Shown in pieces: positions 3,541-59,184 of a DNA stretch of 64,000 nt. The DNA is taken from the NCBI GenBank assembly GCA_018003015.1, contig JAGNEZ010000014.1, positions 1 through 64,000 on the forward strand, written 5' to 3'. Both the position numbers and the translations under genes were made by a program. Below the pieces are notes generated by a model. That model did not search any database. It saw only the letters and a program-made list of their open reading frames with translations, and was not told where the DNA came from. Origin of the DNA: Phycisphaerae bacterium. GTDB taxonomy: Bacteria; Planctomycetota; Phycisphaerae; UBA1845; PWPN01. Every line of letters begins with the position of its first letter. The first letter of the stretch is position 1.

Positions 3541-3807
3541 TATCTGCTCCGACTGATGCGGAGGATACCCCGACCGGGCCTGGGTCCGCAACAACCGGGA
3601 GGAAGTGTGCGGACTTGGAGAGCCGATGGTGCGGAACGAACGAGGCACGGGAAGTGGAGAACGGGATTTCGATGTTGGGGCAGTGACTCGAACCAGCGTA
3701 TCGTTCCTCAGGGACACACCGCGGCGAGGATCCCTTGTTGCTGTCGAGGATCCTGGCCGCGGATCATGGGTGTGATGGGCTTTGGGTGAGCCGCCTCCGC
3801 GATCGGC

Positions 3808-5160
3808 CTACTGACTGGAGTCCGGGCTGATGGGGAAGGGTTCGCTCACCACCACGCCGGAGAAGAGGTTGGACGGCACATCGCTGGGCTTGACCTGCTC
3901 CCTATAGAGCTCGCGCATCTTGACCGGGCTGGGCCCCTGCATGTAGCGGAGGGTGATGCGACGCGGATTCGGCCCGGCGGTCTCGGTTTCCTCGCCGGCA
4001 CGAGCCAGCTCGGGAATTGGTGCCTGGGCGATTTCGAGGGTCCCGCCCGGGTCAACGGTTTTGAGGCGATCGAGCCGGAACGTTCCGGCCGCGGGATCGG
4101 GATCGGGCTGCCAGCGTCGGGTGTTCTCCTGGGTGCCGATGGTGATATCCCACACGAGCTGTGCGTGCCGGGAGCTGTCCGGTCCGAAGTTGAGATTGAG
4201 GGACAGAGGGCGATCCCAGGTGTTGTGTACTTCTGCCACGAGGTGGTGGTTCTGGCGTTTGAGCTGGAGATGGAGGGGTCGTTCTGCCATGCGGATGTCA
4301 TCGGGTGCGGAGCGGGTCACCTCGACTGTGACCGGCTCGCTGGTGACCCGTCCGAAACCGGCCTCGGTCCAGGACTCGTCCTCCCACTGGGGCTGGTACT
4401 CGAAGCGAATGGTGTGCTTACCGGCGGCGAGCATAGGATATCGGGACCAGCCGCGGTTGAATTCCGGGATGCGGAGTTGGGCGTGACTTCCCGGTGTGAT
4501 GGTGTGCGCGGGCGGTTTTTTGCCCGCCCGGAGATCGACGGCCTGGCGGATGTCGGCATCGCCGTCGATCGAGTCGATGCGCAGCTCCAACGGCTGGTGG
4601 TCGGGCCCTGTGACCCTGAGCCAATCGGCGGCGTCGAGCATTCGGCCGACCTGATCGGCGTCGGGTGAAGCCGGCCGGGTGGTGGGTGTTTTGGTCGCAT
4701 CGGGCCAGGGGACCCGCATGGGTCCCTGGCCAGGGTTGTGGGCGTGAAGGATGAGGGTGAACGGTTCGTTCCAGGCCACGCGTGCTGGAACGACCTCGAG
4801 ACGGACGCGGCCGCCGAGCATGATGGCCGCCTGGAGTTCGTTGAGCAGGGTTCGGGCGGAGAGGGCGGCCTCGAGGTCGTTTCCCTGGGCGGCGGTGTGC
4901 AATTCGGGGAAGGTGATTGGTCCCCAGGCGGCGAGTTGCCGGATTGCCTCGCGGCGTTTGGCGGGTGACGGATGCTTGAGTTGCCTGACGGCCTGGCGGA
5001 TCTCTGCGGCGGACGGTTTGGCGGGGGCCGATGCCGTGGTGGTTGCGGTTCGGGAGGCGGTCCGGTTCGCGGTCTGGGCGACCGCTGTCGTGCCACCGCA
5101 GGTCAGCGACCAGGCCATTGCGGCGATCACGCACCGACACGCCGGGGACGTTCTGCTCAT
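3808..5160 (-). CDS. Secreted protein of unknown function with HEAT-like N-terminus
   Basis: This 450-residue protein has a signal peptide (hydrophobic to about residue 28, ending AVAQ), then a Thr/Ala-rich linker and a helical stretch at about 45-110 ('IRQAVRQLKHPSPAKRREAIRQLAAWG') that reads like one or two HEAT-type repeats. The rest is beta-rich with two immunoglobulin-like stretches (about 120-290 and 290-440) without catalytic motifs. The start is supported by GGGAG 8 nt before ATG. It sits 85 bases downstream of uvrA on the same strand, but nothing in it suggests DNA repair; a cell-envelope role is inferred. Function unknown. Confidence 0.75.
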   Translation of the reverse strand: MSRTSPACRCVIAAMAWSLTCGGTTAVAQTANRTASRTATTTASAPAKPSAAEIRQAVRQLKHPSPAKRREAIRQLAAWGPITFPELHTAAQGNDLEAALSARTLLNELQAAIMLGGRVRLEVVPARVAWNEPFTLILHAHNPGQGPMRVPWPDATKTPTTRPASPDADQVGRMLDAADWLRVTGPDHQPLELRIDSIDGDADIRQAVDLRAGKKPPAHTITPGSHAQLRIPEFNRGWSRYPMLAAGKHTIRFEYQPQWEDESWTEAGFGRVTSEPVTVEVTRSAPDDIRMAERPLHLQLKRQNHHLVAEVHNTWDRPLSLNLNFGPDSSRHAQLVWDITIGTQENTRRWQPDPDPAAGTFRLDRLKTVDPGGTLEIAQAPIPELARAGEETETAGPNPRRITLRYMQGPSPVKMRELYREQVKPSDVPSNLFSGVVVSEPFPISPDSSQ

Positions 5161-5245
5161 ACGTTGTTCTCCCGGGTTTGGCCCCGGCGGCGCTGACGAG
5201 AGGGCTGCCTATTGGATGGGGTTTGGCCACTGTCCTTCTGGAGGC

Positions 5246-8212
5246 TCATGAGTTCACTTCGCTTGTGTTGCGGGGCGCGGTCTGGGGGCCGGCGATGCCC
5301 AATCTCGACCGAAGGAACTGCCCGGTGTAGCTGTTTTCGTTGCGGGCCACGTCCTCGGGGCGGCCCTCGACCACGATCCGGCCCCCGCGTTCACCGCCTT
5401 CGGGTCCCAGATCGATAATCCAGTCGGCCATTTTGATGACGTCGAGGTTGTGTTCGATGACCAGGATGGTATGTCCTTTATCTGCGAGGCGGTTCAGCAC
5501 TCGAAGGAGGTTGTGCACGTCGGCGAAGTGCAGGCCGGTGGTTGGCTCGTCCAGCACGTACAGTGTATGGCCGGTGGGTGTCTTAGCCAATTCGGCGGCC
5601 AGTTTGACCCGCTGGGCCTCTCCGCCGGACAGGGTCGTCGACGGCTGGCCGAGCTTCATATAGGACAGGCCGACGTCATCCAGGGCCAGGACGATCTGGC
5701 GGATGTTGGCGAAGCTCTCGAAGAACGAGATGCTCTCATCGACGGTGAGGTCGAGCACATCGGCGATGTTTCGGCCGCGGTAGCGGACTTCGAGGGTTTC
5801 GCGGTTGTAGCGGGTTCCCTTACAGACATCGCAGGCCACGTAGACATCCGGGAGGAAGTGCATTTCGATGCGTTTGGTGCCCTGGCCCTGGCAGGCCTCG
5901 CATCGTCCGCCCTCGACGTTGAAGCTGAACCGTCCGGGGCTGTAGCCGCGGATTTTGGACTCGCGGGTTTTGGCGAACAACTGGCGGACGAGGTCGAAGG
6001 CCCCGGTGTAGGTGCAGGGGTTACTGCGTGGCGTTCGGCCGATGGGGGACTGATCGATTTCGATGACCCGGTCCAGGCGTGAGACGCCGATGATCTGTTC
6101 GAACTTACCTGGTCGTTCACGGGAGTTATACAAGCGGCGGCGGACGGCCTTGAGGAAGACCTCGTTGACCAGGGTGCTCTTGCCGCTGCCGGAGACTCCG
6201 GTCACGCAGATGATGCCGCCGAGGGGGAACCTGACGTCGATGGACTTGAGGTTGTTTTCCGCGGCGCCCTTGATCTCGATGGACTGGGCGAGGACGATTT
6301 TGCGGCGTTTCTGGGGGACGGGGATCTGGATCTCGCCGCGGAGGTACCTAGCGGTCAAGGAATCGGGATGGGCGAGAACCTGCTCGAGGCGACCCTGGGC
6401 GACGATGAGTCCGCCGTGGGTACCTGCTCCCGGGCCCATGTCGATGAGGTGGTCGGCTGCTCGGATGGTTTCCTCGTCGTGCTCGACGACGATGGCGGTA
6501 TTGCCCGCTTGGACCAGTTGGCGGAGGGTATCGACCAGCTGGCTGCTGTCGCGGGGGTGGAGGCCGATGGTGGGCTCGTCGAGGACGTAGCAGACGCCGA
6601 CCATGCCGCTGCCGACCTGGGTAGCCAGGCGGATGCGTTGGGCCTCCCCGCCGGAGAGGGTGGCACTGGCCCGGTCGAGGGTGAGGTAGCCCACGCCGAC
6701 GTTGATCATGAAGCGGAGCCGGTCGGTCACGGCGTGGAGAATCGGGGTGGCGATGGTGGCCTTTTCGCCGCTCAGGGAAATGGTGGCGAGGAATGCGGCG
6801 GCCTGCTCGATTGACAGGCTCGCGACCTGGGCGATGTTTTTGTTGGCGACCTGGACGGCGAGGGGTTCCGCCCGCAGGCGGGCCCGGTGACAGGTTTCGC
6901 AGGGTCGCTCGCTGAGATAGGCGTGCAGTCGCTGCTTGAGTGATTCGCTTTCGGTCGATGCCCAGCGGCGTTTCAGGTTGGGCAGGACGCCTTCGAAGCT
7001 GGTGCCGTATTGGGCCTTGCTCTCCGGGGTGGTGCCGTTCATGAGGATCTCGCGGCGATCTGCGGGCAGCTTGTCGAACGGCACGTCGGGCGGCACGTGG
7101 AATCGCAGGCAGAACTCGTCCAAGAGGTTGCGGTAGACGACGTTCATGCGTTTGCCGCTGTGCCGCCAGGCGGTGATGGCGCCGTCGGCCAGGGACAGCG
7201 TGGGATCGGGCACCACCAAGTCGGGGTCGAATTCGAGGATATTGCCCAGGCCGTCGCAGCCGGGGCAGGCCCCGTGGGGGGAGTTGAAACTGAACATGAC
7301 CGGAGACAGAGCGGGGATGCTGACCTCGGGGTGCAGTGGGCAGGCGAAGGTGGTGCTGAAGAGGTGATCCCTCCATTTGCCATCTGGCTGCTCTTCGGCG
7401 ATGAAGACGGTCTGGCCGCCGAGGTTGAGTCCGAGGGTGATACTCTCGGCCAGGCGGCTTCGGACGTCGGGTTTCACCGCCAATCGGTCGACGACCAGGT
7501 CGATGATGTTCTTGCGGCCTTTGCGTAGGGCGGGCACGTCGCGGAGATCGCAGAGGGTGCCGTTGACGCGGACGCGTACGAAGCCCTGCTTCTGAATGCG
7601 GTTGAGCACCTCCTGAGCTGCTGCGGCCGGGCTCTTGGCTTCACCGGCGGCGGGGATTGGAGATTGGCCTTTGCGGGTTCGTTTCGCGTGAATTGCGGTG
7701 ATCGGGGAACCCGGGGCGATGCCGGGGCCGTGCCGGCCGAGGAGGGGTGCGAGGATCATGATGCGAGTGCCGCCCGGCCAGGCCAGGACCTGGTCGACGA
7801 TCTGGGACGGCTCCTGGCGATCGATCCGACGGCCGCACACCCAGCAGTGGGGTTCGCCCACGCGGGCGTAGAGCAGGCGGAGGTAGTCGTAGACCTCGGT
7901 GGTTGTGGCCACGGTTGAGCGGGGGCTGCTGCTGCCGGCCCGCTGCTCGATGGCGATGGTTGGCGGGAGGCCCTCGATGTGCTCGAGGTCGGGTTTCTGC
8001 ATTTGCTCGACGAACTGTCGGGCGTAGGCACTGAGCGTCTCGATGTATTTCCGCCGGCCCTCGGCGTGGAGGGTGTCGAAAGCGAGGGAGCTTTTGCCCG
8101 AGCCGCTCAGGCCGGTGATGACCACCAGCTGGTCGCGGGGGATGTCCAGGGAGATGGCCCGCAGATTGTGCTGTCTGGCCCCCCGGATTCGGATGTAGCG
8201 ATCGGTGTCCAT
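5246..8212 (-). CDS. uvrA: Excinuclease ABC subunit A
   Basis: UvrA is the damage-recognition ATPase of nucleotide excision repair and acts as a dimer with UvrB. Both ABC modules are complete. Walker A is GLSGSGKSS near residue 35 and GVSGSGKST near residue 640. The signatures [12 protein letters not shown] and [12 protein letters not shown] are each followed by a 'VLDEPTxGLH' Walker B. Zinc-module cysteines are present, including the C-terminal [14 protein letters not shown] pair; the insertion module begins CPLH, a variant with His in place of the second Cys. The frame opens at 8239, but the ATG at 8212 places [16 protein letters not shown] at the N-terminus as in the family. At 988 residues it is about 40 longer than usual. 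Part of this is a Pro/Ala/Lys-rich insert just before the conserved '[10 protein letters not shown]', around residues 170-210. Confidence 0.96.
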
Positions 8213-15351: not shown

Positions 15352-16995
15352 CTACGGTGTCTCGGCCAGTGGCTCGATGAAGACTGGGAACGGTGTCAGC
15401 CGAATGGCCAGGCGCCCGCCGGGCGAGGCCAGAATCTGAACGTCGGGCTCGGTCTGATCGACGCCGGTGATGCTATGGGTCACACGTACGCGGTCGGCGC
15501 CGACGGGCAGAATGGCCGTTCCCGAGCCGGTCTCCTGATCATGGTTGCGGGCGATGTGGTCGTCGTAGAAAGCGACGAGAACGCGACGGCCGCCCTGAAC
15601 GGTGCACTGGTAGGCGTAGATGTAATCCGGGGTGGGCATCCGGCGGCAGGCGGTGATGCCCTGCAGCTTCTCGATCAGCTGTTTGTAGGTGAAGGCGGCG
15701 GGCCAGAGCTGGTTGAGCGTCCTGCTCTTGTATCCGCCGACATGCAGCGGGTAAGGGATGAGTGGTGCCTGGGCGTCGAGCACCCAGCCGTTCATCAGCT
15801 TCCTGGCACCGGCGTTCAAGCCGACCATGCAGCATTTCACGACCATGGCGGCCTGCATGCCGCGATACCAGCGGTTGACCTCTTTGAACTGCTTGTCGCG
15901 CGGGTCGCGCAGGATGCGGATGTAATCCAGGCTGCGTGAAGGCGTCGGGTAGGGATGGAGGGTGGTCATGGGCAAGATCATCGCGTCCAGGAGGGGATGA
16001 GCGGTGTAGATCTCCGCGCTCCAGATCGGTACCGTGGCTCGGCCGGCGCGGCGCAGTTCCTCCTGGCAACGGGCCACGACGCCGTAGTACGACCAGCGGG
16101 CGTCGAGGATATCGTAATCCGGCAGCTTGACGGAGTCGTGGGAGAACTTATCGGCGCGATCCAAAAAAGGGCGCATTCTCGAAGCGACCTTGGGCAACTG
16201 ACCCTGGACGTAGTTTCGGGTACGGGCGTCCATCTCCTTGTCATAGAAGCCGTCGAGGTGATTGAAGCAGATGCCGGCGAGGATGATTTTCACGTCTTTG
16301 CTGGCTTGGCGAGCAGCCTGGGCCACTTCTTTCAGATGGGCGCCGTATTCCTCTACCGTACCGGCCCAGAACAACTCGTTGTAGGCCTCATTGCAGACCT
16401 GGTAGTGCAGGATGGGAAACAGCAGGCCGCGCATGTCGTCCACGCCGTCCCCGTCGTAGCGTTCGACCAGGGCTTGGACGAACTCCCGGAGATCCTGTCG
16501 GTGCTCGGGTTTGGGGACGTAGTCGCCCGCGCCGCGGGGGATTGCCGCGAGCATTCCGCCGAGATAGGTGAACTGTTCCCCGCTGGGCTTGGCGTTGGCC
16601 CACTGCGAGACGAACCGGAGGGACATCATGATATGGACGCCGTACTGCTGCCACTGGCGCACGGCCTCGTCGAGCGCGGTCCAACTGTACGCGTGGCGGC
16701 CGTCCTTGGGCGCGTTCGGCTCCAGGTCACCCCAGTTGATGCGGGAGAAGTTGGCCCAGCGCACCCCGACGAAGCCTCCGAGCTGCCTGACCAGTTCGGG
16801 CTTGCGGAATTCCCGGTCGAGGGCGAAGACGTAGTCCAGGCCGAAGGGGGAGTCCCGGCCTTCTGCGACGTAGCGATTGAAGTCCGAGCCACCAACCGGA
16901 GGCACGACGGACGGTTGGCCGGCACCGGTCTCGGCCGGGCAGATCACCGGTGAGAGGGTTCCGATCGAAAGGACGGCGCAAAGGGCAGTCTTCAT
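15352..16995 (-). CDS. Secreted (beta/alpha)8-barrel glycoside hydrolase, clan GH-A type
   Basis: This 547-residue protein has a signal peptide at the N-terminus (MKTALCAVLSIGTLSPVICPAE) and a TIM-barrel body. An Asn-Glu pair in 'YQVCNEAYN' (E203) fits the acid/base at the end of strand 4, and Glu in 'IWSAEIYT' (E328) fits the nucleophile at strand 7. 'VGVRWANFSRINWGDLEP' and 'HIMMSLRFVSQWA' resemble the start of GH39/GH5-like barrels. A beta-sandwich of about 90 residues follows. The start is supported by CGGAGG 7 nt before ATG. Exact GH family and substrate cannot be assigned by eye. It is flanked by unrelated genes, so this is probably a single-gene unit. Confidence 0.75.
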   Translation of the reverse strand: MKTALCAVLSIGTLSPVICPAETGAGQPSVVPPVGGSDFNRYVAEGRDSPFGLDYVFALDREFRKPELVRQLGGFVGVRWANFSRINWGDLEPNAPKDGRHAYSWTALDEAVRQWQQYGVHIMMSLRFVSQWANAKPSGEQFTYLGGMLAAIPRGAGDYVPKPEHRQDLREFVQALVERYDGDGVDDMRGLLFPILHYQVCNEAYNELFWAGTVEEYGAHLKEVAQAARQASKDVKIILAGICFNHLDGFYDKEMDARTRNYVQGQLPKVASRMRPFLDRADKFSHDSVKLPDYDILDARWSYYGVVARCQEELRRAGRATVPIWSAEIYTAHPLLDAMILPMTTLHPYPTPSRSLDYIRILRDPRDKQFKEVNRWYRGMQAAMVVKCCMVGLNAGARKLMNGWVLDAQAPLIPYPLHVGGYKSRTLNQLWPAAFTYKQLIEKLQGITACRRMPTPDYIYAYQCTVQGGRRVLVAFYDDHIARNHDQETGSGTAILPVGADRVRVTHSITGVDQTEPDVQILASPGGRLAIRLTPFPVFIEPLAETP

Positions 16996-17326
16996 GGTAC
17001 GTCCTCCGTAGGATAATACGCGGTCTCCTGGCGCGAGGTTACACCTTGGGCGGGACAGTAGTCTCCGCCGGCTGTCGCGTTGGGTATTCAGCCGGCAGCT
17101 GTGGCGAGGGGTGGCCCGTGTTTGGAGTCCGGGCGGGAGGTGCGTGGGGGCGTCCGAGGCAATGGGTCTTGCCGGCAGCGTTGACGGCCGCCATCGTCGC
17201 CCGGTCGGCAGTGCTCAGGCATCGTCGGAGTGCAGGCAAGCCCGGTTCGAGCGGGCGTTTGCCGGCAGCGGAGGCGTTTCGCCGTTGAACCGTCGGCCGG
17301 GTCGGTTCTGGGCTCATTTGCCCGCG
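16996..17326. other. Gap between leftward genes, nothing recognised
   Basis: 331 bases between the DinB-like gene and the GH-A-like hydrolase, both leftward. It should hold the 3' end of the former and the promoter of the latter. Several GC-rich short inverted repeats occur, but none has a clear T-tract, and no frame looks coding. Confidence 0.5.
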
Positions 17327-17851
17327 TCAGGCGGGTGGCAAGCCCATTGCTCGGCGCCAGGTGCTGATCTGACCGAGGTGAACCTGGGTATGGCCGATCA
17401 TGTAGAAGTTCAGAGCCATGCCGATCTTGGGGAACAGATCGCGGAGGCGGCCCTCGGCGGGATTAGGAGCGTCGAAGGCTTCATCGGCGGTTGACTCGAT
17501 GGCCGCGATGGCCGCCCGGTAGCTTCCGAAGAAGAAGGTCTTCATCTTCTCGAGGGGCGGGTACACCGTGCCGGCGGGGTCGTTTTGGCATTCGGCCCCG
17601 AACTTGAACAAGGGTTCGTAACTGGCGGGAAGGGCCGTTAGGCCCTCCGGCAGCTTGAGGTACTGCATGGTGCGCACCGGGTAGAGCGACAGGTGCCCGA
17701 GCACGAACGCGGGGTGGTTGGATTTGACCACCACGCCGCCGGGGCTGGCGAACCGGGCGTAGTTTTCCTGGGTCACCTGGTCAAGCAGCCGCTCCGCGTA
17801 CATCTGACTGAGCTTGGCTCCGGCGGCGATGATCGATCCGACTCGTCCCAT
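17327..17851 (-). CDS. DinB-superfamily four-helix-bundle protein
   Basis: A 174-residue cytoplasmic protein. The start at 17851 is fixed by GGGAG about 9 nt upstream; the frame runs much further back but that part is low-complexity. The sequence is helical, with His in 'SNHPAFVLGHLSLYP' and 'IGHTQVHLGQISTWRRAMGLPPA' at the end. These match the DinB fold, where three His residues bind a metal near the helix-bundle mouth. Members act in thiol- or metal-dependent transfer reactions; which reaction applies here is unknown. Confidence 0.72.
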   Translation of the reverse strand: MGRVGSIIAAGAKLSQMYAERLLDQVTQENYARFASPGGVVVKSNHPAFVLGHLSLYPVRTMQYLKLPEGLTALPASYEPLFKFGAECQNDPAGTVYPPLEKMKTFFFGSYRAAIAAIESTADEAFDAPNPAEGRLRDLFPKIGMALNFYMIGHTQVHLGQISTWRRAMGLPPA

Positions 17852-53982: not shown

Positions 53983-54672
53983 ATGTTCGAACGATTCAGC
54001 GATCATGCCCGCAAGGTCATGGCTCTGGCCAATCAGCAGGCCCAGCGTCTCGAGCACGACCACATCGGGACGGAGCACATCCTCCTCGGGCTGGTCAAGG
54101 AAGGCACCGGCGTCGCGGCCAACGCCCTCAAGACGCTGGGTGCGGATCTCGATCGCGTGCGGCACGAGGTGGAAGGCATGCTCACGCCCGGCGATCAGGG
54201 GCCCGGGTCGGGTAAGCTTGCCCAGGTACCGGCCGCCAAGCGGGTTATCGAGTACGCGATCGAGGAGGCCCGGCTGCTCAACCATCGCTACGTTGGCAGC
54301 GAGCATCTGCTGATTGGGCTTCTCCGTGAGCAGGAGGGCTTGGCGGCCCGGGCGCTGATGAACCTGGGCGTGCGGCTGCACGATGCCAGACTGGCCATCG
54401 CCGACCTGCTTGGCGAGGCACCGCCGGAGCCGCTGGCCGTCCCATCCGACGCCCACTTGCCTCCCTTGACCGGGGCAGGGCTGCGGTTGCAGGCCCTGCT
54501 CGTCTCCATCGACCAGCAGTGTAACCAGTTGATGGCCGGGCCGGAGGGAGACGCGTCCTCATTGCGGAACAGACGGGCCCGCGCTCCCGAGATCAAGACG
54601 ATTCTCCTCGACAGGATCGAGCAGTTGACCGGGCAGGCTCGCGGCTTCTGGGAAGAGCTCCGGGAAAAGTGA
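53983..54672 (+). CDS. Stand-alone Clp N-domain protein
   Basis: A 229-residue protein. The first ~145 residues are the double Clp repeat of ClpC/ClpA N-domains: 'MFERFSDHARKVMALANQQAQRLEHDHIGTEHILLGLVKEG' and 'IEYAIEEARLLNHRYVGSEHLLIGLLREQEG'. There is no AAA+ ATPase domain, and the C-terminal ~80 residues are a predicted coiled/helical region ('EIKTILLDRIEQLTGQARGFWEELREK'). It is likely an adaptor or decoy that mimics substrate or adaptor contacts of ClpC. GAGG 7 nt before ATG supports the start. It is 75 bases upstream of the tetraheme cytochrome gene, same direction; co-transcription is possible. Confidence 0.88.
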   Translation: MFERFSDHARKVMALANQQAQRLEHDHIGTEHILLGLVKEGTGVAANALKTLGADLDRVRHEVEGMLTPGDQGPGSGKLAQVPAAKRVIEYAIEEARLLNHRYVGSEHLLIGLLREQEGLAARALMNLGVRLHDARLAIADLLGEAPPEPLAVPSDAHLPPLTGAGLRLQALLVSIDQQCNQLMAGPEGDASSLRNRRARAPEIKTILLDRIEQLTGQARGFWEELREK

Positions 54673-54747: not shown

Positions 54748-55470
54748 GTGAGTCGGACCGGGACCACGTTTGCTCTGCCCTCGGACCCTCCACGGCGCTG
54801 GCAAGCGTGGTTTGTACCGCTCGTGCTGATTGCCCTGACCGGCCTGCTGCTCGCCGATCCCTGGCCGTACGTCAGCCCGGCGGGTCCGGCTGCAGTCGTG
54901 CCCGCCTCGGCCACGGACATCACCCCGGTCCGCCGACCGATTCTCAAGCCCGAGACGGTCGTTGCGGGTATGACTTACCGCTGCAGCGAATGCCACAACC
55001 TGTTTCCTTCGCCCGTCGAGACCGACCGGCCGTTGACTCAGCACCGTGCAATCGTGCTCGAGCACGGGATCAATGGGCGCTGCTTCAACTGCCACAACCG
55101 CGAGGATCGCAACGCCTTTGCCGACGACCGCGGCGGCCCGATCCCCTTCGATCAGCCGCCGCTGCTGTGTGCGAAATGCCACGGACCCGTCTACCGCGAC
55201 TGGACGCACGGCGTGCATGGCCGGACCAATGGCTACTGGGATCCCGAGCTTGGCCCGATGGAGCGTCGCAAGTGCGTTGAATGCCACGATCCGCACAACC
55301 CGGCGTTCCAGCCGATGCAGCCGGCGCCCGGCCCGAACACGTTGCGGATGGGCGATCAGCGATCGGAAGCTGAAGGACGGGGCGAGACCAGGAACCCGTT
55401 GCTGATCTACCGCCAGCGGTTGCCGGCCGGTCGCGGGGATGAGGCAAAGCCACGGGGGCACCGCCCATGA
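54748..55470 (+). CDS. Membrane-anchored tetraheme cytochrome c
   Basis: A 240-residue protein with an uncleaved N-terminal membrane helix (about 20-37) and a periplasmic domain with four CxxCH heme sites: CSECH (79-83), CFNCH (112-116), CAKCH (141-145) and CVECH (176-180), plus a Pro/Arg-rich tail. The start is a GTG with AGGAG 7 nt upstream. The stop overlaps the Fe-S gene by 4 bases (ATGA), so the two are translationally coupled. The likely role is electron carrier between the quinone-linked Fe-S/NrfD module and the octaheme enzyme, comparable in position to NrfB or NapC/cM552-type donors but not homologous enough by eye to assign. Confidence 0.93.
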   Translation: MSRTGTTFALPSDPPRRWQAWFVPLVLIALTGLLLADPWPYVSPAGPAAVVPASATDITPVRRPILKPETVVAGMTYRCSECHNLFPSPVETDRPLTQHRAIVLEHGINGRCFNCHNREDRNAFADDRGGPIPFDQPPLLCAKCHGPVYRDWTHGVHGRTNGYWDPELGPMERRKCVECHDPHNPAFQPMQPAPGPNTLRMGDQRSEAEGRGETRNPLLIYRQRLPAGRGDEAKPRGHRP

Positions 55471-56474
55471 GCGAGGAGGACAGCCAGTCGAGCGGACCCG
55501 GTCTCACCCGGCGAGGCTTCTTCCGCAAGAGCGCGGTGGCCGCCACCGGTGCCGCGGCCATCGCCGCTGCGGTCTCGCCCTTGCGGAAGATGTCGCCCGA
55601 CGACATCCCGACGCTGGAGCGCTTCCTGCAGAAGCACTACAAGGAGATGACCCCGGCCGAGATGCAGACCGCCCTGGATCGCATCGCCCGCGAGGTCGAG
55701 AATCGTTTTGCTGTCCGGCCGAGCCTCAGCGACGTCAAGCCCATGGTCGGCGTCGAGTTCGTCTATGCTCTGAACATCAGCCGGTGCATCGGCTGCCGGC
55801 GATGTGTCCATGCCTGCGTCAAGGAGAACAACCTGTCGCGGGCCCCTGAGATCCAGTACATCCGCGTCCTCAAGATGGAGAAGGGCAGCATCGATCTCGA
55901 GAGCTCGGACCATCATTACGATCCGCCGGTCGTGCCCGAGCACGACAGCTACTACATGCCCGTGCAGTGCCACCAGTGTGCCAAGCCGCCGTGCGTCAAG
56001 GTCTGCCCGGTCGAGGCCACCTGGCAGGAGCCCGATGGCCTCACGGTCATCGATTACGACTGGTGCATCGGCTGCCGCTATTGCGAAGCGGCCTGTCCTT
56101 ACTGGGCCCGGCGGTTCAACTTTGCCCAGCCGGAGTTGGCGGCCAAAGACCTCAATCCGGACATGAGCTACCTGTCCAACCGGCCGCGGCCAAAGGGCGT
56201 CATGGAGAAGTGCACTTTCTGTCTGCACCGCACGCGGGTCGGGAAGCTGCCCGCCTGCGTCGAGGTTTGCCCGACCGGATCGCGCAAGTTCGGCAACGTG
56301 CTGGACCCCGAGAGCGAGGTGAGCTACATCCTGCGGCACAAACGGGTGTTCGTTCTCAAGGAAGAGGTCGGCACGCTCCCCCGGTTCTTCTACTACTTCG
56401 ACGAGCGCGGAAGCCGCTACCACGAGTCGGTTGAATCCGGCCAGGCCACGGAACGGGGTGGAGGTGGGGGATGA
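55467..56474 (+). CDS. Tat-exported four-cluster ferredoxin subunit (NrfC/HybA-like)
   Basis: A 335-residue protein. A twin-arginine signal ('TRRGFFRKSAVAATG', Arg15-Arg16) is followed by sixteen cluster cysteines in four groups: 107/110/113/117, 168/171/176/180, 200/203/206/210 and 249/252/264/268, matching four [4Fe-4S] clusters. This is the arrangement of NrfC, HybA, DsrO and PsrB-type electron-transfer subunits, which pair with an NrfD-like membrane protein. The C-terminus ends in a Gly-rich stretch. It overlaps the neighbouring genes by 4 bases at both ends. It would carry electrons between the quinone site of the NrfD subunit and periplasmic cytochromes. Confidence 0.95.
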   Translation: MSEEDSQSSGPGLTRRGFFRKSAVAATGAAAIAAAVSPLRKMSPDDIPTLERFLQKHYKEMTPAEMQTALDRIAREVENRFAVRPSLSDVKPMVGVEFVYALNISRCIGCRRCVHACVKENNLSRAPEIQYIRVLKMEKGSIDLESSDHHYDPPVVPEHDSYYMPVQCHQCAKPPCVKVCPVEATWQEPDGLTVIDYDWCIGCRYCEAACPYWARRFNFAQPELAAKDLNPDMSYLSNRPRPKGVMEKCTFCLHRTRVGKLPACVEVCPTGSRKFGNVLDPESEVSYILRHKRVFVLKEEVGTLPRFFYYFDERGSRYHESVESGQATERGGGGG

Positions 56475-57718
56475 AGCGATACCTCACCTTCCTCCGGCAG
56501 TGCGCCCAGATCAGCTTCGTCGGCGACTGGCGCTACTACACCTGGATGACCATCCTGACCGTTCTCTCGCTGGTCGGCCTGCACGCCTGGTGTACGCAGC
56601 TGGTGAACGGCCTCGTGACCACGGGCATGACCGACCAGGTGTCGTGGGGGGTGTACATCGCCAACTTCACCTATCTTGTGGGCCTGGCGGCCGCGGCGGC
56701 CATGCTGGTCATTCCGGTCTACATCTATCGCAACATGCACCTTTACCACGTGGTCATCTTCGGCGAACTGCTGGCCGTCGCAGTGATCGTCATGTGCCTG
56801 CTGTTCGTGACTGTGGATCTCGGCCGGCCGGATCGCTTCGCTCACCTGCTGCAGCGGTTCAATTTCCCGGTTTCCATGCTGACCTGGGACGTTATCGCCC
56901 TCAACGGCTACCTGATCCTCAACCTGCACATCTGCGGGTACCTGATCTACTGCGCCTACTGCGAGCGGGAGCCGTCCAAGGTCTTCTACGTGCCCTTTGT
57001 GTTCGTGGCCATCGTCTGGGCGGTGAGCATCCACACCGTGACCGCGTTCCTGTACGTCGGGCTCGGCGGCCGGCCGTTCTGGAACTCCGCGATCATTGCG
57101 CCCCGCTTCCTGGCCAGTGCGTTCGCGGCCGGGCCGGCGTTCATCATCCTGACGCTGCAGATCGTGCGGCACTACACCCGGTACCACGTTGGCGACGACG
57201 CCCTGCTGACCCTGCGACGGATTGTGCAGGTCGCCACGATCATCAACATCTTCCTGCTGGGTTGCGAGCTGTTCACCGAGTTTTACTCCGACTCGGCCCA
57301 CATTGCCTCGTCGCGCTACCTGTTCTTCGGCCTTCACGACCGGCACGCGCTGGTCCCTTGGATCTGGACGGCGGTCGCGTTCAACGTCCTGGCGACAATT
57401 CTGCTTGTGCTGCCCGCTTCTCGGGGCCTCAAGGTTCTGAACGTGGCCTGCGTGCTGACCATCGTGGGCATCTGGATCGAGAAAGGGATGGGGCTGATCG
57501 TCCCGGCGTTCATCCCCACTCCGCTGGGCGAAGTTGTCGAGTACGTGCCCACCCTGCACGAGGTCCAGATCTGCCTGGGCATCTGGGCGTTTGGCCTGTT
57601 GCTGTATACCCTGTTTGTGCGTATGGCGGTGCCGGTGCTCTCCGGCGAGCTGACCTATCGCAGGGACCATGGCGTTTCATACGAAGATCACCGTCGGGCG
57701 ACCGCCGAGACGGTCTGA
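56471..57718 (+). CDS. NrfD/PsrC-family quinone-interacting membrane subunit
   Basis: A 415-residue protein with about nine to ten membrane helices, e.g. 'VSWGVYIANFTYLVGLAAAAAMLVIPVYI', 'GYLILNLHICGYLIYCAYC', 'FIILTLQIVRHYT' and 'VCVLTIVGIWIEKGMGLIVPAF'. The 'WGVYIANFTYLVGLAA' and 'SIHTVTAFLYVG' blocks are typical NrfD/DsrP-type features. It anchors the Fe-S subunit and exchanges electrons with menaquinone. The ATG overlaps the preceding stop (ATGA). It is larger than E. coli NrfD (about 318 residues), closer to the PsrC/HmcC/DsrP size class. 17 bases separate it from the octaheme gene. Confidence 0.94.
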   Translation: MKRYLTFLRQCAQISFVGDWRYYTWMTILTVLSLVGLHAWCTQLVNGLVTTGMTDQVSWGVYIANFTYLVGLAAAAAMLVIPVYIYRNMHLYHVVIFGELLAVAVIVMCLLFVTVDLGRPDRFAHLLQRFNFPVSMLTWDVIALNGYLILNLHICGYLIYCAYCEREPSKVFYVPFVFVAIVWAVSIHTVTAFLYVGLGGRPFWNSAIIAPRFLASAFAAGPAFIILTLQIVRHYTRYHVGDDALLTLRRIVQVATIINIFLLGCELFTEFYSDSAHIASSRYLFFGLHDRHALVPWIWTAVAFNVLATILLVLPASRGLKVLNVACVLTIVGIWIEKGMGLIVPAFIPTPLGEVVEYVPTLHEVQICLGIWAFGLLLYTLFVRMAVPVLSGELTYRRDHGVSYEDHRRATAETV

Positions 57719-57735
57719 AAGGGAGTGACCAAGAC

Positions 57736-59184
57736 ATGCAAGCCATTCGACCCATCCTGCTGAACCGTCTGGCGATCGTGCTGCTGGCCGCTTCACCGGC
57801 CTGGGCGGCCCCGTGGGGCCTGCCGGAGATCTCGGCCAAGAGCAAGGCCTGCATCGAGTGCCACCGCAAGGATAACACGCCGATCTATCAGCAATGGGGC
57901 GGCAGCAAGCACTTCCGGGCCCACATCGGCTGCTATGAATGTCATGCCGCCCAGGACGGCGAGGGGGACGCTTTCAAGCATGAGGGCGAGCTCATCGCCA
58001 CGATCGTGTCGCCCAAGGACTGTGCCCGCTGCCACGAGAAGGAAACCGCCCAGTTCGGCGAGTCCCACCACTCCAAGGGCGCCCGCATCCTCGGCTCGCT
58101 GGACAACACCCTGGCCGAAGTGGTCGAGGGCAACAATGCCTTCAAGACGACCGGGTTCCCCGACGGCACCAGTGCCGCGGCGGTCAACGGTTGTTGGCAG
58201 TGCCACGGTTCGCAGGTCAAGGTCCTGCCCGGCGGCAAGCTTGATCCGGCCACCTGGCCGAACACCGGCATCGGGCGGATCAACCCGGACGGTTCCGAAG
58301 GCTCCTGCGCCGCCTGTCACAGCCGGCACAGCTTCTCGGCCTGGCAGGCTCGCCACCCGGACGCCTGCGGCAAGTGCCACATGGGACCTGATCATCCCCA
58401 GAAGGAGATCTACGAGGAGTCCAAGCACGGTATCGCCTTCAAAGCCTTCCGCGAGAAGCTCAACATGGACTCGGCCAAGTGGGTTCTGGGCGAGGACTAC
58501 AGCAGCGCTCCGACCTGTGCGACCTGTCACATGAGCGCCACGAAGAACCAGGCGCTCAACCACGACATCGGGCTGCGGATCAGCTGGAACAACCGGCCGG
58601 CGGTCTCCATCCGTCCCGAGGCAAGCGATCAGAAGATGGGGCTTCCGGGAGCGAGCGTGGACTGGAAAGCCCGCCGGGCGAACATGCAGAACGTCTGCCT
58701 CAACTGCCATGCGAAGCAGTGGGTGGACAACTTCTATGTGCAGTATGACGGACTGATCGAGCTGTACCACGACAAGTTCGCCAAGCCCGGCCTGGAGCTG
58801 TACGAGCTGGCCAAGCCTTTGTTGGTACCGATCGAGTTCGCGAACGCCGTCGATTTCACCTGGTATGAGATCTGGCACCACGAGGGCCGCCGCGCCCGCC
58901 ACGGGGCCTCGATGATGGGACCCGACTACACCCACTGGCACGGGACTTACGAGGTCGCCAAGCACTTCTACGCGCACTATGTGCCGGAACTCCGCGGGCT
59001 GGCCGAGGAAAACGCCAAAGCTGCCGAACCCGCCAAGGCCGAGGCGGCCAAGAAGCTCCAGGCCAAGCTGGACGAGGTGCTGGCCTCCGCGAACCACCGG
59101 TGGTTCATCAACCAGATGGACGCCGCCGAGAAGGACCGTCGGGCCAAGGCGGCCGAGGATTTCCGCAAGCGGTACAGCAAGTGA
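57736..59184 (+). CDS. Octaheme cytochrome c, hydroxylamine oxidoreductase family
   Basis: A 482-residue periplasmic protein. The signal peptide covers about residues 1-24. Eight CxxCH sites follow at 39, 66, 96, 153, 191, 211, 261 and 321 (first Cys). After heme 8 come 'NFYVQYDGLIELYHDKF' and then 'WHHEGRRARHGASMMGPDYTHWHG' (380-403), which is a diagnostic HAO-family block. HAO enzymes oxidise hydroxylamine or hydrazine, while relatives (epsilon-type Hao) can reduce nitrite or hydroxylamine. Whether the cross-linking Tyr of HAO is present needs alignment; Tyr398 in 'GPDY' is in about the right place. A C-terminal Lys/Ala/Glu-rich helix (425-480) has no membrane segment. GGGAG lies about 10 nt upstream of ATG. 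It is the last gene of the four-gene operon. Confidence 0.9.
   Translation: MQAIRPILLNRLAIVLLAASPAWAAPWGLPEISAKSKACIECHRKDNTPIYQQWGGSKHFRAHIGCYECHAAQDGEGDAFKHEGELIATIVSPKDCARCHEKETAQFGESHHSKGARILGSLDNTLAEVVEGNNAFKTTGFPDGTSAAAVNGCWQCHGSQVKVLPGGKLDPATWPNTGIGRINPDGSEGSCAACHSRHSFSAWQARHPDACGKCHMGPDHPQKEIYEESKHGIAFKAFREKLNMDSAKWVLGEDYSSAPTCATCHMSATKNQALNHDIGLRISWNNRPAVSIRPEASDQKMGLPGASVDWKARRANMQNVCLNCHAKQWVDNFYVQYDGLIELYHDKFAKPGLELYELAKPLLVPIEFANAVDFTWYEIWHHEGRRARHGASMMGPDYTHWHGTYEVAKHFYAHYVPELRGLAEENAKAAEPAKAEAAKKLQAKLDEVLASANHRWFINQMDAAEKDRRAKAAEDFRKRYSK

What the first reader, a model, noticed from the sequence alone, without database searches (positions are those of the whole stretch)
54748..59184. 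Nrf-like respiratory module with an HAO-family octaheme enzyme in place of NrfA
Four genes read in one direction with 4-base ATGA overlaps or 17-base spacing: a membrane-anchored tetraheme cytochrome, a Tat Fe-S protein with sixteen cluster cysteines, an NrfD-type membrane subunit and an octaheme HAO-family cytochrome. The Nrf pathway (NrfBCD with pentaheme NrfA) sends electrons from menaquinol to nitrite. Here the enzyme slot is filled by the HAO fold. I infer a quinone-linked periplasmic system that reduces nitrite or hydroxylamine, or runs in reverse, and I do not know of a standard name for this exact combination.
Basis: partly seen in the sequence, partly recalled or inferred. Interest (0 to 1): 0.85.

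Follow-up and report, generated by a model that had tools for sequence, protein, structure and literature searches.

The report
Octaheme nitrite-reductase operon with Dsr-type partners
Four adjacent genes in an uncultured planctomycete probably build a membrane chain that takes electrons from quinol and gives them to an eight-heme enzyme that reduces nitrite (most likely to ammonium), standing in for the usual enzyme NrfA; the same operon recurs across Planctomycetota and Verrucomicrobiota, often beside a nitrate reductase.

Summary
The four genes are as described. The octaheme protein (OCC) belongs to the HAO family by sequence, tree and predicted fold, with Ignicoccus OCC as its nearest solved relative. 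It has an invariant His where Nitrosomonas HAO has its cross-linking Tyr467, which marks reductive members. The partners are closer to DsrJOP than to NrfBCD: the membrane subunit exceeds the curated DsrP cut-off and the Fe-S protein scores best against DsrO. The genome shows no DsrM/NarI and no dissimilatory sulfite reductase. The four-gene order is complete in 59 of 69 related loci with enough flank, across Planctomycetota, Verrucomicrobiota and Hydrogenedentota. Periplasmic nitrate reductase NapA follows directly downstream in 12 of 56 testable module loci. Across 394 phylum genomes, OCC and NrfA almost exclude each other (3 have both, 20 expected); of 46 NapA genomes, 18 have OCC, 15 NrfA, none both. 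A sister OCC clade uses a Rieske/cytochrome b partner, also beside NapAB. Best reading: a quinol-linked nitrite (and hydroxylamine) reductase that replaces NrfA. A similarly composed locus beside nap was reported in 2017 in two NrfA-less ammonifiers of another phylum, so this is a new variant of a known kind. The substrate is inferred, not assayed, and this genome has no nitrate reductase.

The parts
54748..55470 (+). CYT4: membrane-anchored tetraheme cytochrome c (240 aa, GTG start, N-terminal anchor, CXXCH at residues 79, 112, 141, 176); the DsrJ-like place in the order, probable electron relay to the OCC
   Evidence: four hemes in 58 of 59 relatives, the exception being a gene fragment
55467..56474 (+). 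Periplasmic (Tat) protein with 16 cysteines for four [4Fe-4S] clusters, DsrO-like; overlaps CYT4 by ATGA
   Evidence: (DsrO 172 bits, just under the cut-off of 200; NrfC 102)
56471..57718 (+). NrfD-family integral membrane quinol-binding subunit, DsrP-type; overlaps the Fe-S gene by ATGA
   Evidence: PF03916; DsrP 413 bits, cut-off 350
57736..59184 (+). OCC: secreted octaheme cytochrome c of the HAO family, reductive type (His400 at the Tyr467 place), probable nitrite/hydroxylamine reductase
   Evidence: (PF13447)

Best explanation
The operon encodes a quinol:nitrite oxidoreductase of the periplasmic side. The DsrP-type NrfD subunit oxidises menaquinol; electrons pass through the four [4Fe-4S] clusters of the DsrO-like protein and the four hemes of the anchored cytochrome to the octaheme HAO-family enzyme, which reduces nitrite (and hydroxylamine) to ammonium, or to hydroxylamine that the cytoplasmic hybrid cluster protein finishes. 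It fills the niche that NrfA fills in related genomes. Shown: gene anatomy, family membership, conserved order, NapAB adjacency in relatives, near mutual exclusion with NrfA, reductive active-site signature, absence of other recognised reductases. Inferred: direction of electron flow, substrate, product, complex formation.
For: HAO family by Pfam PF13447, by PDB sequence hits that are all HAO/HDH/Ignicoccus OCC and by predicted fold (pLDDT 86.5; the 11 significant PDB matches are all HAO family). Invariant His at the NeHAO Tyr467 place; a His there marks reductive enzymes (PMC12758564). Conserved four-gene order in 59 of 69 loci. NapA directly downstream on the same strand in 12 of 56 testable module loci (identified as NapA by an equivalog model, with NapB-like partners); the sister Rieske/cytochrome b OCC loci also sit beside NapAB. 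OCC and NrfA exclude each other: 3 of 81 against 93 of 313 genomes, Fisher p 7e-8; of 46 NapA genomes 18 have OCC, 15 NrfA, 0 both, p 7e-5. In the window's family and order, G307 and G329 carry NrfA and no OCC. Own genome: no NrfA, no heme-copper oxidase or NorB, no molybdo-reductase, no NarI/DsrM, but Hcp. Cultured ammonifiers without NrfA carry a similarly composed locus beside nap (PMC5276818).
Against: No activity is shown for any member. The own genome has no nitrate reductase, so nitrite would have to come from outside. Nine loci with enough flank carry a closely related OCC with no linked partner. The DsrP/DsrO likeness could point to sulfur substrates. The exclusion statistics treat related genomes as independent. 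Orthology with TDIS_0606 was not tested; that paper gives no sequence and predicted no signal peptides.
Confidence: 0.68

Rival explanations
1. It is an NO-forming nitrite reductase, like the proposed role of Kuenenia HAOr and of kuste4574, feeding a partial denitrification.
For: HAOr lacks the Tyr cross-link and makes NO from nitrite (PMC12758564); kuste4574 in a Rieske/cytochrome b complex is proposed to do the same (PMC12954380); a putative Onr replacing NirK/NirS was suggested for Phycisphaerae (PMC11266412).
Against: The own genome has no NorB (PF00115 family absent) to use NO. The genomes where OCC is missing tend to have NrfA, an ammonium former. The protein is far from HAOr in the tree.
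Confidence: 0.12
2. It detoxifies or disposes of hydroxylamine, NO or nitrite rather than serving respiration.
For: No nitrate reductase in the own genome; Hcp present; a fermentative or anaerobic life is likely, as no heme-copper oxidase was found.
Against: A dedicated quinol dehydrogenase module is unusual for pure detoxification; relatives link the operon to NapAB.
Confidence: 0.1
3. It reduces a sulfur compound (sulfite, tetrathionate, polysulfide); the Dsr-type partners mark a sulfur pathway, as in MccACD.
For: DsrP/DsrO-like partners; MccACD joins an octaheme sulfite reductase to Fe-S and NrfD subunits (PMC8076601); a sulfur role has been proposed for clade I HAO proteins (PMC9213671).
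Against: The own genome has no NarI/DsrM and only a single-chain siroheme reductase of assimilatory type; the neighbours are NapAB, and no sulfur gene was recognised among the recurrent neighbours; OCC hits no MccA or OTR structure.
Confidence: 0.07
4. It runs oxidatively: hydroxylamine or hydrazine oxidation feeding electrons into the quinone pool.
For: The HAO fold; oxidative HAO enzymes exist in Planctomycetota.
Against: The cross-linking Tyr is replaced by His in all 23 rows of A1 and no row of the wider alignment shows a Tyr there except NeHAO; no heme-copper oxidase was found to take electrons onward.
Confidence: 0.03

Closest known systems
[quoted passage not shown]
   Same: HaoA-homologous multiheme cytochrome, NrfD-family protein, 4Fe-4S protein and second multiheme cytochrome, with numbering that fits the same gene order; beside nap genes; hosts ammonify nitrate and lack NrfA
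   Different: Another phylum; described only as a hypothesis in two genomes; no sequence comparison could be made here; those papers did not describe spread in PVC bacteria, a Dsr-type relation or exclusion with NrfA in the passages read
NrfABCD of enterobacteria
   Same: NrfD-type quinol subunit, 4x[4Fe-4S] protein, multiheme relay, multiheme terminal nitrite reductase
   Different: The enzyme is HAO-fold octaheme, not pentaheme NrfA; the relay is an anchored tetraheme protein, not NrfB; the membrane and Fe-S subunits score closer to DsrP/DsrO
DsrMKJOP
   Same: DsrP-type membrane subunit above the curated cut-off, DsrO-like Fe-S protein, anchored multiheme cytochrome in the DsrJ place; the order J-O-P
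   Different: No NarI/DsrM family protein and no dissimilatory sulfite reductase in the genome; the cytochrome has four hemes where DsrJ has three; an OCC is added downstream
epsilonHao / HaoCA (reverse-HURM) of Campylobacterota (PMC3701875)
   Same: HAO-family enzyme without the Tyr, proposed quinol-linked nitrite reducer, with Nap in the same genome and Hcp
   Different: The quinol partner there is a NapC/NrfH-type tetraheme protein; here it is a DsrJOP-type module
MccACD / SirACD octaheme sulfite reductase (PMC8076601)
   Same: Octaheme terminal reductase served by Fe-S and NrfD-type subunits
   Different: MccA is another octaheme family with a heme-copper site (PMC9213671 reference list); OCC has eight plain CXXCH motifs and HAO sequence and fold
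Kuenenia kuste4569-4574 Rieske/cytochrome b complex with HAO-like OCC (PMC12954380)
   Same: HAO-like OCC proposed to reduce nitrite with quinol-derived electrons; comparable Rieske/cytochrome b-OCC loci form a sister group here
   Different: The quinol-oxidising partner is Rieske/cytochrome b, not an NrfD module

Membership tests
HAO-family octaheme cytochromes | Sequence profile and eight heme motifs of the family | tested here: met
   PF13447 84.5 bits (cut-off 21.9) and eight CXXCH; PDB hits only HAO/HDH/Ignicoccus OCC
HAO-family octaheme cytochromes | HAO fold | tested here: met
   AlphaFold2 model pLDDT 86.5; the 11 PDB matches with E below 0.001 are all HAO family, 4qo5 best at 1.8e-18
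Oxidative HAO/HDH | Cross-linking Tyr (Tyr467 of N. europaea HAO) | tested here: not met
   His400, invariant in the 23-row alignment
NrfA pentaheme / ONR octaheme nitrite reductases | CXXCK active-site heme motif and NrfA-type homology | tested here: not met
   Eight CXXCH and no CXXCK; no NrfA match in the own genome with PF02335, so not at this locus either
NrfABCD system | NrfC and NrfD by curated models | tested here: not met
   NrfC 102 bits against a cut-off of 377.6; no NrfD equivalog model hit; DsrP 413 bits above its cut-off of 350
DsrMKJOP | DsrP subunit | tested here: met
   413 bits, cut-off 350; also met by relatives
DsrMKJOP | DsrO subunit | tested here: inconclusive
   Best model, but 172 bits against a cut-off of 200
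DsrMKJOP | DsrM/DsrK partners and dissimilatory sulfite reductase | tested here: not met
   No PF02665 match; only a single-chain NirA/SiR-like protein. DsrK itself was not searched
DsrMKJOP | Triheme DsrJ | tested here: not met
   CYT4 has four CXXCH, as do its full-length relatives
reverse-HURM (HaoA with NapC/NrfH-type quinol dehydrogenase) | NapC/NrfH partner at the locus | tested here: not met
   Partner is CYT4-FeS-NrfD; NrfH model only 24.6 bits against 134.2. A distant relative, L096, does have an NrfH-like partner
Quinol-linked nitrite ammonification | Measured nitrite to ammonium activity | not testable with these tools
   Needs expressed protein or a culturable carrier

The most novel reading that the evidence does not exclude
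A PVC-wide respiratory nitrite ammonification complex in which the JOP half of the Dsr complex, cut loose from DsrMK, drives an HAO-fold octaheme nitrite reductase; it is the main replacement of NrfA in these phyla, and the same enzyme clade has swapped its quinol partner at least between DsrJOP-type and Rieske/cytochrome b modules.
Probability: 0.5. Interest if true: 0.72.

Novelty: new variant of a known kind. Interest (0 to 1): 0.56.

Why it matters
Many Planctomycetota and Verrucomicrobiota look as if they lack a nitrite reductase, because surveys look for nrfA, nirK and nirS; PMC11266412 notes this gap for Phycisphaerae and names a culturable carrier of the octaheme protein. If this operon is an ammonifying nitrite reductase, nrfA-based counts of nitrate ammonifiers miss a widespread group. 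It would also show that the DsrJOP module is a portable quinol dehydrogenase, and that one enzyme clade can be plugged into different quinol-oxidising partners.

Tried and rejected
Nrf membership was rejected on curated models. Dsr sulfite pathway membership was rejected: no NarI/DsrM and no DsrAB-type reductase. Oxidative HAO was rejected on the Tyr to His change. The first structure prediction, from a narrow alignment, was poor (pLDDT 53.6) and was not used; a broader alignment gave a usable model. No sigma-70 promoter-like site was found and the terminator-like sites were no more than chance and on the other strand. CYT4 has no significant PDB relative, and its kinship with DsrJ could not be tested for want of a DsrJ model or sequence. 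Papers by Ferousi (HAOr) and Pereira (Ohc/Nhc complexes) are not held. The cytochrome bd family gave only a weak partial match with no NCBIfam support, so a terminal oxidase remains uncertain.
Full report
OBSERVATION. Gene 1 (54748-55470) is a tetraheme cytochrome with one N-terminal hydrophobic segment; gene 2 (55467-56474) a Tat-signal protein with 16 cysteines in four clusters; gene 3 (56471-57718) an NrfD-family membrane protein; gene 4 (57736-59184) a secreted octaheme cytochrome. Composition scans show no unusual GC in this region.

CONSERVATION. A search of one genome per species with the octaheme protein alone returned 80 loci. Of the 69 with at least 3.2 kb upstream, 59 carry all four genes in the same order and strand, one carries a partial set and nine carry none. 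The carriers are mainly Planctomycetota and Verrucomicrobiota, with Hydrogenedentota and one record labelled Deltaproteobacteria; the Omnitrophota and Lentisphaerota loci seen carry the enzyme without linked partners where flank allowed a judgement. The conserved residues include all heme and cluster cysteines apart from fragmentary rows. In the phylum sample 143 of 394 genomes hold some relative of the octaheme protein.

WHAT THE ENZYME IS. Pfam gives the multi-heme HAO family (PF13447, 84.5 bits). The best solved relative is the Ignicoccus hospitalis octaheme cytochrome 4qo5, then Kuenenia HAOr and Nitrosomonas HAO; no NrfA, ONR, OTR or MccA chain appears. A predicted model (pLDDT 86.5) matches only HAO-family structures at E below 0.001. 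The chain passes from a relative (L096) to N. europaea HAO: the residue aligned with Tyr467 (reached by counting residues in the printed 1fgj alignment) corresponds to His400 here, invariant across 23 close relatives and His, Gln, Trp or Thr in wider ones. PMC12758564 states that reductive members have His at this key site. The Asp219-His220 pair matches Asp267-His268 of N. europaea HAO; that this pair lines the active site is from memory. The tree places all module enzymes and the partnerless ones in one clade (SH-aLRT 98), apart from enzymes beside Rieske/cytochrome b genes and from the enzyme of an inferred anammox group, and far from HAO and HAOr. Those two outgroup branches are very long, the reference sequences were pieced together from printed alignments, and only a quick tree was run, so deep branching is unsure.

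WHAT THE PARTNERS ARE. NCBIfam assigns the membrane subunit to DsrP (413 bits, cut-off 350) and ranks DsrO first for the Fe-S protein (172, cut-off 200; NrfC 102); relatives from other loci agree. The order cytochrome, Fe-S, NrfD equals dsrJ-O-P. The own genome has no NarI/DsrM family member and only a single-chain siroheme reductase that scores best, below cut-off, against ferredoxin-nitrite reductase. So this is a JOP-like module without its usual M partner; DsrK was not searched.

FUNCTIONAL CONTEXT. In 12 of 56 module loci with at least 2.5 kb downstream, napA follows on the same strand 172-903 bases after the enzyme match. It scores above the cut-off of one NapA equivalog model and just below that of another, and a NapB-like cytochrome follows. 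None of the 14 loci without an NrfD match has napA, though some of these contigs are short. In a sister clade the same kind of enzyme sits beside a Rieske and a cytochrome b gene, again with NapAB in three of the loci read (L094, L104, L105). One distant relative has an NrfH-like partner (L096). In 394 phylum genomes, strong OCC matches (E up to about 1e-99, so module and Rieske/cytochrome b types together) and true NrfA matches co-occur in 3 genomes where 19.7 are expected (Fisher p 7e-8); for the module type alone, 1 where 5.8 are expected (p 0.014). Of 46 genomes with NapA, 18 have OCC, 15 NrfA, none both (hypergeometric p 7e-5). The genome sets were copied by hand from the printed tables. 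Related genomes are not independent, so these p values are too small; yet within the window's own family and order two genomes (G307, G329) have NrfA and no OCC, while the window's genome and six of its order have OCC and no true NrfA.

THE OWN GENOME (98.7% complete, 3.4% contamination). One HAO-family gene, no NrfA, no molybdopterin enzyme but NuoG, no heme-copper oxidase or NorB, a hybrid cluster protein well above cut-off, a doubtful cytochrome bd match. Without a nitrate reductase, nitrite, NO or hydroxylamine must come from neighbours. Without NorB, NO as main product is less attractive than ammonium, or hydroxylamine finished by Hcp.

MECHANISM. Menaquinol is oxidised at the DsrP-type subunit, electrons pass through four [4Fe-4S] clusters and the anchored tetraheme cytochrome to the octaheme enzyme, which reduces nitrite. 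The family anatomy and localisation signals are shown; direction, substrate and product are inferred.

COMPARED WITH WHAT IS KNOWN. Slobodkina and co-workers (PMC5276818) described in T. dismutans and D. thermophilus a four-gene locus of similar make-up, beside nap genes, in organisms that ammonify nitrate without NrfA, and suggested nitrite reduction; PMC4911364 left its specificity open. The gene numbers fit the same order (cytochrome 0609, Fe-S 0608, membrane 0607, HaoA homologue 0606). The Phycisphaerae octaheme protein has been called a putative Onr (PMC11266412). What appears to be added here is the spread across PVC phyla, the Dsr-type identity of the partners, the swap of partners within one enzyme family and the exclusion with NrfA. 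It works like Nrf and reverse-HURM but is a member of neither by the features tested. The literature search was limited to open papers, so earlier mention elsewhere is possible.

Noticed in passing
L048:9469-9999, L060:9461-9982 and 21 other loci, directly downstream of the OCC gene or after napA: A family of proteins of about 145-180 aa with no Pfam or NCBIfam match recurs beside the OCC/Nap genes in 23 of 80 loci; it may be an accessory or maturation factor. Not seen in the window.
   Followed up: partly
L092, L093, L094, L095, L103, L104, L105: OCC relatives with Rieske and/or cytochrome b genes upstream, three of them beside NapA/NapB: the quinol partner differs between sister clades.
   Followed up: partly
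L012, L016, L018, L026, L037, L045, L054, L072, L075: Closely related OCC genes (66-72% identical) with no linked partner genes although flank was available; their electron donor is unknown.
   Followed up: no
L102 (genome G145), 3780-8169 and 15942-17528: A genome with five OCC matches, from a family inferred to be anammox-like, carries the four-gene module and an Ignicoccus-type OCC about 8 kb downstream.
   Followed up: partly
L107, L108 (genomes G098, G015): These genomes hold a second, divergent copy of the module with a 54-55% identical OCC and a strongly diverged NrfD subunit.
   Followed up: no
window 53983-54672: A free-standing Clp N-domain protein (PF02861) ends 75 bases upstream of the operon on the same strand; linkage to the operon not tested.
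   Followed up: no
whole genome G000: No heme-copper oxidase, NorB, nitrate reductase or other molybdopterin enzyme beyond NuoG was found, and cytochrome bd is doubtful: the organism looks like an anaerobe with few recognised terminal reductases.
   Followed up: partly
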